A stretch of 64,000 nucleotides of DNA from Bifidobacterium sp. ESL0732 (lineage in GTDB: Bacteria > Actinomycetota > Actinomycetes > Actinomycetales > Bifidobacteriaceae): NCBI RefSeq assembly GCF_029395535.1, contig NZ_CP113920.1, forward strand, positions 1,674,001 to 1,738,000, read 5' to 3'. The stretch's first letter is position 1. Every line of letters starts with the position of its first letter. Position numbers and translations under genes: made by a program. The notes beneath the pieces are model-generated. The model did no database searches. It was not told the DNA's origin and worked only from the letters and a program-made list of their open reading frames with translations. Shown piece by piece: positions 39,838-41,612 of this stretch.

Positions 39838-39943
39838 CAACTGACGTGGTGGAGTGGGGATATACAATGTCCGACACGCTCCGGGCCGCTCAGGCCAAGT
39901 CTTTACGGTCTGACATCGCATATCCCCACCCCACCACTCAACC
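39838..39943 (+). repeat. long-hairpin element, copy 1 (ftsZ-dusB gap)
   Basis: From CAACTGAC to ACTCAACC. The outer stem is GTGGTGGAGTGGGGATAT against ATATCCCCACCCCACCAC with one mismatch; the second stem is ATGTCCGAC against GTCTGACAT with one mismatch; the apex has GGCC/GGCC around GCTCA. It shares its core with two further copies at 41331 and 41508. No coding potential is evident. Confidence 0.85.
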
Positions 39944-39966
39944 ACACTAATTTTTATCAACACAAA

Positions 39967-41280
39967 TCAGTAGCTGGCATCCATCGGGTCATCACCGAAA
40001 AGCTGCTCGCGTTCTTCGTGGGTAGTGGTACACGAATCGAACCAGCCGTAAGGAACGTGGACCTTTTTCGCGTAGCGAACACGGCCACGAGGCTTATCGG
40101 TTATCCGTTCTGGATAAGTGACAGTCGGATCAAGCCTGTCCATCACTTTTCTGACGTCGTCCAAAGTTTCGGACTCCATGAACTCGCGACGGATATTGCC
40201 GCCGACGGGAAAACCTTTGAGGTACCACGCGATGTGTTTGCGCAAATCATGCACGGCCATCGTCTCGTCGCCGTCATAGAAACGAAGCAAGAGCTCACCG
40301 TGGGCCAGAATGATCTGACAAACGCCACCCAAAGTAGGGCTGAAACGCTCGTCGGAACCAGCGAAGGCATGCTTGATATCGGAGAATATCCAAGGCCTTC
40401 CCTGACATCCGCGGCCGATGGCGACACCGGCGCAACCGGTCTCACGCACCATTTCCAACGCATCCTCGGCACCCCAGATGTCACCGTTGCCAAAGACCGG
40501 AATATCCACGGCCTCGACCAGTTCGGCGATACGGCTCCAGTCGGAATGGCCGCCATAGTATTCAGCGGTGGTGCGCGCGTGAAGCGTCACTGCGACGCAG
40601 CCCTCATCTTCCGCGATACGTGCGGCATCGAGGAACGTCGTATGGTCGGCGTCGATACCTACGCGGATTTTCGCGGTGACAGGAATGTTGGCATCACTGC
40701 ACACTTCGACCACACGGTGGATGAGCTCGCGGAACAGGTCGGTCTTCCACGGCAGCGCGGAACCGCCGCCACGACGCGTGACCTTGGGAACAGGGCAGCC
40801 GAAGTTGAGGTCAACGTGGTCGGCCAGATTGCCATGAACCACCATTTGCGCGGCTTGTGCAGTGATATTGGGATCGACACCGTAGAGCTGGAGCGAGCGG
40901 GGCTGCTCGGTGGGTGCGAAGCGGCACAGCCTGAACGCTTTGGGGTTTCGGGCGACCAGCGCACGCGCGGTGATCATTTCGGCGACATACAGGCCATCGG
41001 GGCCATACGCACGGCAAAGCGTCCGGAACGGCCAGTTGGTGACGCCCGCCATCGGAGAAAGCACCACCGGCGTCTCGACGTGGATGGGTCCTAGGTCGAC
41101 CGGTGCGATCTTCGGCAACGGCTTGCCATCGGCCGGCGCCTCATATTCGCCGGCTGCGGCACTGGTCGCTTCCGGATCGAGCCCGGGCAGCGCCTTGAGC
41201 GCCTCGTCCCAGCCCTCATCAAAGTGCTGTCGGGCCTCCGAATAATCCACTTTCTTCAGCCATTCCACAAAGTTCTTCAC
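39967..41280 (-). CDS. dusB: tRNA-dihydrouridine synthase
   Basis: A 437-residue flavoenzyme that reduces uridine to dihydrouridine in tRNA. The FMN barrel is visible (VVLSPMAGVTNWPFRTLCR, AEMITARALV, HVDLNFGCPVPKVTRRGGGSAL with the catalytic cysteine, GNGDIWGAEDALEM and AIGRGCQGRPWIF). An actinobacterial N-terminal extension of about 60 residues precedes the barrel. The start is GTG(41280), with AGGGGA 5 bases before it. It is flanked on both sides by copies of the long-hairpin element. Confidence 0.93.
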   Translation of the reverse strand: MKNFVEWLKKVDYSEARQHFDEGWDEALKALPGLDPEATSAAAGEYEAPADGKPLPKIAPVDLGPIHVETPVVLSPMAGVTNWPFRTLCRAYGPDGLYVAEMITARALVARNPKAFRLCRFAPTEQPRSLQLYGVDPNITAQAAQMVVHGNLADHVDLNFGCPVPKVTRRGGGSALPWKTDLFRELIHRVVEVCSDANIPVTAKIRVGIDADHTTFLDAARIAEDEGCVAVTLHARTTAEYYGGHSDWSRIAELVEAVDIPVFGNGDIWGAEDALEMVRETGCAGVAIGRGCQGRPWIFSDIKHAFAGSDERFSPTLGGVCQIILAHGELLLRFYDGDETMAVHDLRKHIAWYLKGFPVGGNIRREFMESETLDDVRKVMDRLDPTVTYPERITDKPRGRVRYAKKVHVPYGWFDSCTTTHEEREQLFGDDPMDASY

Positions 41281-41330
41281 GTATCCCCTATTTTATTTGT
41301 TTATTTATTCAATCTTCGTCAACGATATTC

Positions 41331-41437
41331 CAACTGACGCGTTGGAGAGCGGGATATACAATGTTCGGGACGCTCCTTGGCCGCTCGGCCGTGTCTTACG
41401 CCCGACCATCGCATATCCCGCTCTCCAACACTCAACC
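41331..41437 (+). repeat. long-hairpin element, copy 2 (dusB-glyS gap)
   Basis: From CAACTGAC to ACTCAACC. The outer stem GTTGGAGAGCGGGATAT pairs perfectly with ATATCCCGCTCTCCAAC; the second stem is ATGTTCGGG against CCCGACCAT; the apex is GGCC/GGCC. The stem bases differ from copy 1 at many places, but pairing is kept. Confidence 0.85.
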
Positions 41438-41507
41438 AAAGACTCTTTTAAATGTCAAAGTATTCCACCATCAACTGCTAAAGATATTCGTACAAGAGCC
41501 AGAATGT

Positions 41508-41612
41508 GTTGAGTGCTTGGGGCTGGGATATGCGATGTCAGACCGTAAAGACTTGGCCTGAGCGGCCCGGAGCGTGTCGGACATTGTATATCCCAGCCCC
41601 AAGCACGTCAGT
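41508..41612 (-). repeat. long-hairpin element, copy 3, inverted (dusB-glyS gap)
   Basis: Reverse orientation to copies 1 and 2 and 70 bases from copy 2. On the minus strand the outer stem GTGCTTGGGGCTGGGATAT pairs perfectly with ATATCCCAGCCCCAAGCAC. The whole interior (from ATACAATGTCCGACACG to GTCTGACATCGC) is identical to copy 1, while the outer stem is different. It lies about 40 bases past the glyS stop. Confidence 0.85.

What the first reader, a model, noticed from the sequence alone, without database searches (positions are those of the whole stretch)
39838..41612. Three copies of a ~106-bp long-hairpin element with compensatory stem changes around dusB
Copies at 39838-39943, 41331-41437 and 41508-41612 (inverted) share conserved flanks (CAACTGACG, ACTCAACC), a conserved interior and a GGCC/GGCC apex. 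Their outer stems are different sequences that remain complementary (GTTGGAGAGCGGGATAT, GTGCTTGGGGCTGGGATAT, GTGGTGGAGTGGGGATAT with matching partners). Copies 1 and 3 have identical interiors but unrelated outer stems. The second stem also covaries (CCGAC/GTCTG versus TCGGG/CCCGA). This pattern indicates selection on structure: either a palindromic mobile repeat (REPIN/MITE-like) or a family of structured RNA or DNA elements. I do not know a described family that matches.
Basis: seen in the sequence. Interest (0 to 1): 0.85.

Follow-up and report, generated by a model that had tools for sequence, protein, structure and literature searches.

The report
Long hairpin repeats between bifidobacterial genes
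Bifidobacteria carry a scattered family of roughly 100-base DNA hairpins between genes whose two arms differ from copy to copy yet stay matched, which makes them a natural test of how matched stems evolve.

Summary
The window has three long hairpins (39839-39943, 41333-41436, 41508-41612), each far more stable than its shuffles. They belong to a dispersed intergenic family: 10 short-form places plus 2 long-form copies and 1 fragment found in this genome, matches in 82 of 189 Bifidobacteriaceae genomes (4 of 16 genera), and in 1 of 296 genomes sampled over the class (the window's own). Among 234 copies the two arms of the 12-position outer stem occur in 206 distinct combinations; 152 copies are fully Watson-Crick there. 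The apex and a helix ATATGCGATG/CATTGTATAT are more conserved. 60 of 61 close pairs are head to head; 1 of 196 classifiable copies lies between divergent genes. At the dusB locus of 13 related species the sites show compensated stems, swapped or lengthened interiors, one inverted interior and copies with mismatched arms. Most likely this is a REP/MITE-like hairpin repeat, not found in Rfam or the papers searched, and without the RAYT transposase of REPs. Its compensatory changes probably come from template switching and exchange between copies, plus strand-specific selection, clearest in the conserved helix (G-U 44, A-C 3). Mobiliser, transcription and function are not shown.

The parts
39839..39943 (-). 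Copy 1 (short form), alone, between dusB and the next gene downstream. Read on the - strand: tag GTTGAG, stem, core, stem, tag CGTCAG.
   Evidence: sequence, fold, model match at genome 1713845-1713938
41333..41436 (-). Copy 2 (short form, different interior), upstream of dusB; one half of a head-to-head pair.
   Evidence: sequence, fold, model match at genome 1715339-1715431
41437..41507 (.). 71-nt spacer between the 5' ends of copies 2 and 3.
41508..41612 (+). Copy 3 (short form, core identical to copy 1); other half of the head-to-head pair.
   Evidence: sequence, fold, model match at genome 1715513-1715606
39860..39869 (+). Copy 1, one arm of the conserved helix P1b (ATATACAATG on +); partner 39914-39923.
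39846..39859 (+). Copy 1, one arm of the variable outer stem P1a; partner 39924-39937.

Best explanation
The three copies belong to a family of dispersed, non-coding palindromic repeats of Bifidobacteriaceae that live like REP/REPIN or MITE repeats: intergenic, downstream of genes, commonly in head-to-head pairs. Each is one long hairpin: an outer stem of about 13-17 bp whose sequence is largely free (P1a), a more conserved helix (P1b), a covarying helix (P2) and a conserved apical region; a long form carries extra hairpins in the apex. Shown: family, distribution, anatomy, covariation, pairing, gene context, and turnover at one orthologous locus. Inferred: (a) new copies arise by structure-dependent mobilisation in trans by an enzyme not identified here, with the apical region and P1b as the likely recognition part; (b) the outer arms are kept complementary mainly by template switching between arms during replication together with exchange between copies, which also swaps and occasionally inverts interiors; (c) selection on the folded strand adds to this, most clearly in P1b; (d) where transcribed in a 3' UTR the hairpin probably acts on the mRNA end, as is proposed for REPs.
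For: Family and spread; absent from the rest of the class as sampled. Structure: (206 distinct arm combinations in 234 copies, 152 copies fully Watson-Crick over 12 positions). Copies with an identical interior have different arms, e.g. 7 copies with 7 different 5' arms. Head-to-head pairs 60 of 61. Gene context 176 co-directional, 19 convergent, 1 divergent of 196, baseline 72:4:8 (Fisher for divergent 0.0003). Copies antisense to the upstream gene lie a median 24 nt after its stop, 84 of 93 within 60 nt. Presence or absence at orthologous sites: upstream of dusB in 12 of 13 species, downstream in 6 of 13, in none of six more distant species by eye. Signs of template switching or exchange: inverted interior, interior swapped under the same 5' arm and copies with mismatched arms. 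Strand bias G-U over A-C in P1b 44:3, also outside the window's clade 32:1.
Against: No mobilising enzyme found; RAYT-type Y1_Tnp absent. No clear target duplication at the downstream dusB site, so movement of single copies is not proved. Only 1 inverted interior among 65 copies whose tags could be read, of 136 in the clade. At one orthologous pair the states G-C (G090), G-U (G000) and A-U (G084) occur, which is the classical stepwise route under selection rather than template switching. Gene calls and the context baseline come from my own script on few loci. No transcription data.
Confidence: 0.5

Rival explanations
1. A family of structured RNA elements (3'-UTR hairpins or small RNAs): selection on the RNA fold, not the mutation process, keeps the stems paired, and the apical region binds a protein or is processed.
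For: Strong covariation in every stem position; G-U over A-C in P1b 44:3 and in all variable stem positions taken together 113:48; position just after stop codons; G-C, G-U and A-U at one orthologous pair.
Against: No promoter excess upstream of the elements (8 of 136 clade copies against 6.3 shuffled; 3 of 98 others against 1.5). No Rfam match. Copies antisense (93) and sense (83) to the flanking genes are about equally common. P2 has no G-U bias (9:10). Orthologous sites lose the element freely.
Confidence: 0.25
2. Purely mutational palindromes: old repeat copies without present function or mobility, kept complementary by template switching and spread by recombination only.
For: Inverted interior, mismatched chimeras and interior swaps; outer stem with only weak G-U bias (47:27).
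Against: Conserved apex and P1b, strand bias in P1b within and outside the clade, near-exclusive head-to-head pairing, avoidance of divergent regions.
Confidence: 0.15
3. A mobile or embedded promoter: on the strand opposite to the G-U strand, the tag CTGACG and the P1b sequence TACAAT form a -35/-10 pair with the variable stem as its 16-17 nt spacer, which would explain why the stem is fixed in length but free in sequence.
For: The three copies gave the only three promoter-like hits of a 2-kb scan (1.5 expected by shuffling). 67 of 234 copies fit, against 16.75 with shuffled spacers and 18 on the other strand; 59 of 136 in the window's clade.
Against: Only 8 of 98 copies outside the clade fit, although the hairpin is there too. 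In head-to-head pairs the two promoters would fire at each other. Much of the excess follows automatically from two conserved blocks at a fixed distance.
Confidence: 0.07

Closest known systems
REP/REPIN repeats, GTAG super-family, with RAYT transposases
   Same: Dispersed intergenic palindromes; alternative complementary stems; dimers in opposite orientation; mostly between co-directional or convergent genes (PMC3733652: abstract, passages and section 14 seen).
   Different: REPs are 20-40 bp with stems of 5-13 bp and a GTAG tag (same paper); here the copies are about 93-178 nt with some 34 paired positions in the main helix, no GTAG tag, and no RAYT in the own genome.
CGTC-tagged REPs
   Same: No dedicated transposase, mostly paired elements, a CGTC sequence at one end (PMC3733652, passages).
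   Different: Their stems are 8-9 bp and loops 4-5 bp; here CGTC lies 3' of the hairpin on the G-U strand and points outward in the pairs, and many copies outside the window's clade lack it.
ERIC, BOX, RUP, Correia and other MITE-like intergenic repeats (recalled; not compared by sequence)
   Same: About 100-bp, structured, intergenic, non-coding.
   Different: To my knowledge (recalled) their stems do not vary wholesale with compensation; no sequence test was made.
Template-switch evolution of hairpins (a mechanism, not a family)
   Same: Arm homogenisation, multi-base compensatory change and spacer inversion (PMC8794818: abstract and outline; PMC8604942: passages).
   Different: Described there for RNA genes and for yeast coding sequences; here it would act on a multi-copy repeat with exchange between copies.

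Membership tests
REP/REPIN (GTAG) with RAYT | RAYT/Y1 tyrosine transposase in the genome | tested here: not met
   PF01797: none in G000; 1 of 20 element-bearing and 2 of 19 element-free genomes match; the control genomes ring
REP/REPIN (GTAG) with RAYT | 20-40 bp palindrome with GTAG tag | tested here: not met
   hairpins of 93-178 nt; tags of the window copies are GTTGAG and CGTCAG
REP/REPIN (GTAG) with RAYT | paired in opposite orientation, avoiding divergent gene gaps | tested here: met
   60 of 61 pairs head to head; 1 divergent of 196
CGTC REP | stem 8-9 bp, loop 4-5 bp, CGTC tag, CCA-like tail | tested here: not met
   long multi-part hairpin; CGTC on the other side of the stem
MITE | terminal inverted repeats with target site duplication, empty sites | tested here: inconclusive
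   head-to-head pairs look like inverted ends and empty sites exist, but no clear duplication
Rfam RNA family | covariance-model match at gathering score | tested here: not met
   only a tRNA in the window; weak microRNA-hairpin scores far under their gathering scores over the elements
Intrinsic terminator | GC-rich hairpin followed by a T run | tested here: not met
   no T run after the hairpins; the scan's single hit is elsewhere
Integron attC site | outer boxes RYYYAAC...GTTRRRY (recalled) in cassette arrays with an integrase | tested here: not met
   GTTGAGT lies at the 5' end with the hairpin 3' of it, the wrong order for attC; by eye; integrase not searched
ERIC/BOX/RUP/Correia | family consensus sequence | not tested
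   no consensus compared
Structured non-coding RNA | transcription | not testable with these tools
   no RNA data held

The most novel reading that the evidence does not exclude
A new class of hairpin mobile element in which an unknown bifidobacterial enzyme reads a long folded single strand by its apex and P1b while the outer stem is free in sequence, so that the same element keeps changing its stem by template switching and exchange between copies; or a lineage-wide 3'-UTR RNA element with this unusual way of evolving.
Probability: 0.25. Interest if true: 0.75.

Novelty: new variant of a known kind. Interest (0 to 1): 0.55.

Why it matters
Compensatory change is usually taken as the best sign of a functional RNA. 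Here a family with hundreds of copies and orthologous sites in many species shows near-perfect stems of largely free sequence together with an inverted interior and mismatched chimeras, which are marks of template switching. It lets one measure how much covariation the mutation process alone can make. It also adds a REP-like repeat family in Actinobacteria, a phylum that is not among those listed for tagged REPs in PMC3733652 (passages).

Tried and rejected
RAYT-type transposase as mobiliser: not found in the own genome. A shared neighbouring gene: the recurrent open frames beside copies were readings of the element itself or orthologous loci such as uvrA, by eye. Own small-RNA promoter upstream: no excess over shuffles. 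Intrinsic terminator: no T run. attC: wrong order of boxes (by eye). Preference of pairs for unlike interiors: 11 A-A, 37 A-other and 13 other-other of 61 pairs are close to chance (about 14, 31 and 16, by hand); my type pattern left 54 of 234 copies untyped, many of them plainly A- or D-like, so nothing is claimed. A K-turn reading of the type A apex (recalled consensus) was dropped because types C and D do not fit. Of 18 stretches in genome contigs with the 20-base pattern, 11 are Bifidobacterium (two genomes) and 7 are other organisms; about 7 are expected by chance (hand estimate), so the 7 were not pursued.

Rows dropped and limits: searches gave 196 and 183 matches and each alignment took the best 150. 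Of these 300 rows, 50 overlapping (mostly opposite-strand) rows and 16 duplicates were dropped, leaving 234 copies. 38 of 234 copies at locus edges had no gene class. Copies were found with a model built from 21 copies of this genome and its close relatives, so a fit to the fold is partly built in. G-U and A-C counts are on distinct arm combinations but are not independent events. The context baseline is 84 gaps of 150 nt or more from the window and 18 loci, 17 of which were fetched because they carry or match the element. Clade membership (136 and 98 copies) was typed by hand from the locus lists. Searches over more than 40 genomes use stricter filters. In one search records very near the window's genome may be left out.

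Full report
Observation. Copies 2 and 3 are a head-to-head pair with a 71-nt spacer, between dusB and the gene upstream of it; copy 1 is alone, between dusB and the gene downstream.

Family. A DNA search of the window's genome gave 11 matches at 10 places. A covariance model from 21 copies gave 17 matches at 10 places, seven of them weaker opposite-strand hits. Two of the places are not among these ten: a fragment at 373,557 and a long-form copy at about 1,292,150; a further long form lies at about 178,000 (loci L010 and L061). By DNA alone 60 of 112 genomes of the genus match; by the model 82 of 189 genomes of the family in 4 of 16 genera, and 1 of 296 genomes sampled over the class, the own one. 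Plasmid and phage records gave no match, and an exact 32-base apical pattern none in viral contigs. A 20-base pattern in genome contigs gave 11 Bifidobacterium stretches and 7 others; about 7 are expected by chance (hand estimate).

Anatomy. Read on the strand where the conserved mismatches are G-U: tag GTTGAG (or another tag, often ending in AG), outer stem P1a, helix ATATGCGATG/CATTGTATAT (P1b), covarying helix P2, then an apical region with a GGCC/GGCC helix. A long form of about 178 nt has extra hairpins in the apex. In 234 copies the arms of 12 outer-stem positions form 206 distinct combinations; 152 copies are Watson-Crick at all 12 and 51 have one non-pair. Copies with identical interiors differ in their arms: 7 copies of one interior have 7 different 5' arms. 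Beyond P1b the stem is 13 bp in 55 of 98 copies outside the window's clade and 13-17 bp in 123 of 136 inside it. The 5' arm is G-rich: G 1481, T 410, C 334, A 228.

Arrangement. 60 of 61 neighbouring pairs within 400 nt are head to head with spacers of 32-392 nt; one is head to tail. Of 196 copies with a called gene on both sides 176 lie between co-directional, 19 between convergent and 1 between divergent genes; baseline gaps of 150 nt or more were 72, 4 and 8. The lack of divergent sites is significant (Fisher 0.0003), the excess of convergent ones is not (0.24). Copies antisense to the upstream gene lie a median 24 nt after its stop codon, 84 of 93 within 60 nt; sense copies a median 195 nt, 14 of 83 within 60 nt.

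One locus in 13 species. Around dusB at least one upstream element is present in 12 and the downstream element in 6 of 13 related species; in six more distant species none was seen by eye in the stretches printed. At these sites one sees: the same 5' arm with a short apex (G000) or a long apex (G090) downstream; the same 5' arm with a type B interior (G089) or a type C interior (G090, G082) upstream; pairs changed on both arms (G084 against G000 and G090 downstream), among them one pair that is G-C in G090, G-U in G000 and A-U in G084; arms that no longer match (upstream long copies of G091, G083 and G092); and an interior inverted between normally oriented tags (G084; 1 of 65 copies whose tags could be read, of 136). 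Comparing empty and filled downstream sites gave no clear target duplication.

Selection or mutation mechanism. Both leave matched arms. Template switching homogenises arms and inverts the spacer (PMC8604942, passages) and is proposed to make multi-base compensatory changes (PMC8794818, abstract and outline). Selection on a folded strand predicts more G-U than A-C. On distinct arm combinations the counts are P1a 47:27, P1b without its two fixed G-U positions 44:3, P2 9:10, all together 113:48; outside the clade P1b is 32:1 and P1a 17:8, inside it 13:2 and 30:19. So the strand with G-U is favoured in P1b, weakly in P1a and not in P2. The G-C, G-U, A-U series at one site speaks for stepwise change there. 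These counts are not independent events, and I read them as both processes acting.

What it works like, and what it is. The habit matches REPs as described in PMC3733652 (abstract, passages and section 14): opposite-orientation dimers, positions after genes, alternative complementary stems. It is not filed as a REP: size and tags differ, and the RAYT family is missing. Rfam has no match at gathering score over the elements. It was not found in print in seven searches of the open PubMed Central library; Bifidobacterium does not occur in the main text of PMC3733652, PMC2267715, PMC1590033 or PMC12306157 (find only), and PMC4449606, on bee-gut bifidobacteria, has the word palindrome only in its references (find only). 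Most subscription papers, and preprints, are not in that library.

An unexpected feature. In the window's clade the strand opposite to the G-U strand carries CTGACG and TACAAT about 16-17 nt apart, with the variable stem as spacer: 59 of 136 clade copies and 8 of 98 others fit a loose promoter rule. It may be a real promoter or a by-product of two conserved blocks at a fixed distance; it cannot be the reason for the hairpin across the family.

Noticed in passing
window 39841-39868 (+), 41334-41362 (+), 41611-41583 (-): A -35/-10-like pair CTGACG / TACAAT inside each hairpin on the strand opposite to the G-U strand, with the variable stem as spacer.
   Followed up: yes
L155 (G087), upstream of dusB: The whole intergenic region with its elements is missing: the upstream gene's stop codon runs almost directly into the dusB coding sequence, and the usual start codon is gone.
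   Followed up: no
L152 (G085), downstream of dusB: The sequence after dusB differs from the other species, where the next gene follows; the locus seems rearranged.
   Followed up: no
L036 spacer (1286-1493), L166 and L168 upstream of dusB: Another intergenic repeat with CCCCTCAGTCGGCT... and a GGGGAGC hairpin occurs in several Bifidobacterium genomes.
   Followed up: no
L028, L029, L030, L031, L032 (G048, G016, G047, G010, G055): A copy sits beside what looks like uvrA at the same place in five genomes, a second orthologous site for studying stem change.
   Followed up: no
apex of type A copies, e.g. window 41508-41612: The asymmetric loop CGUAAAGAC.../...CGGAGCG resembles a K-turn (consensus recalled), but types C and D do not fit.
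   Followed up: partly
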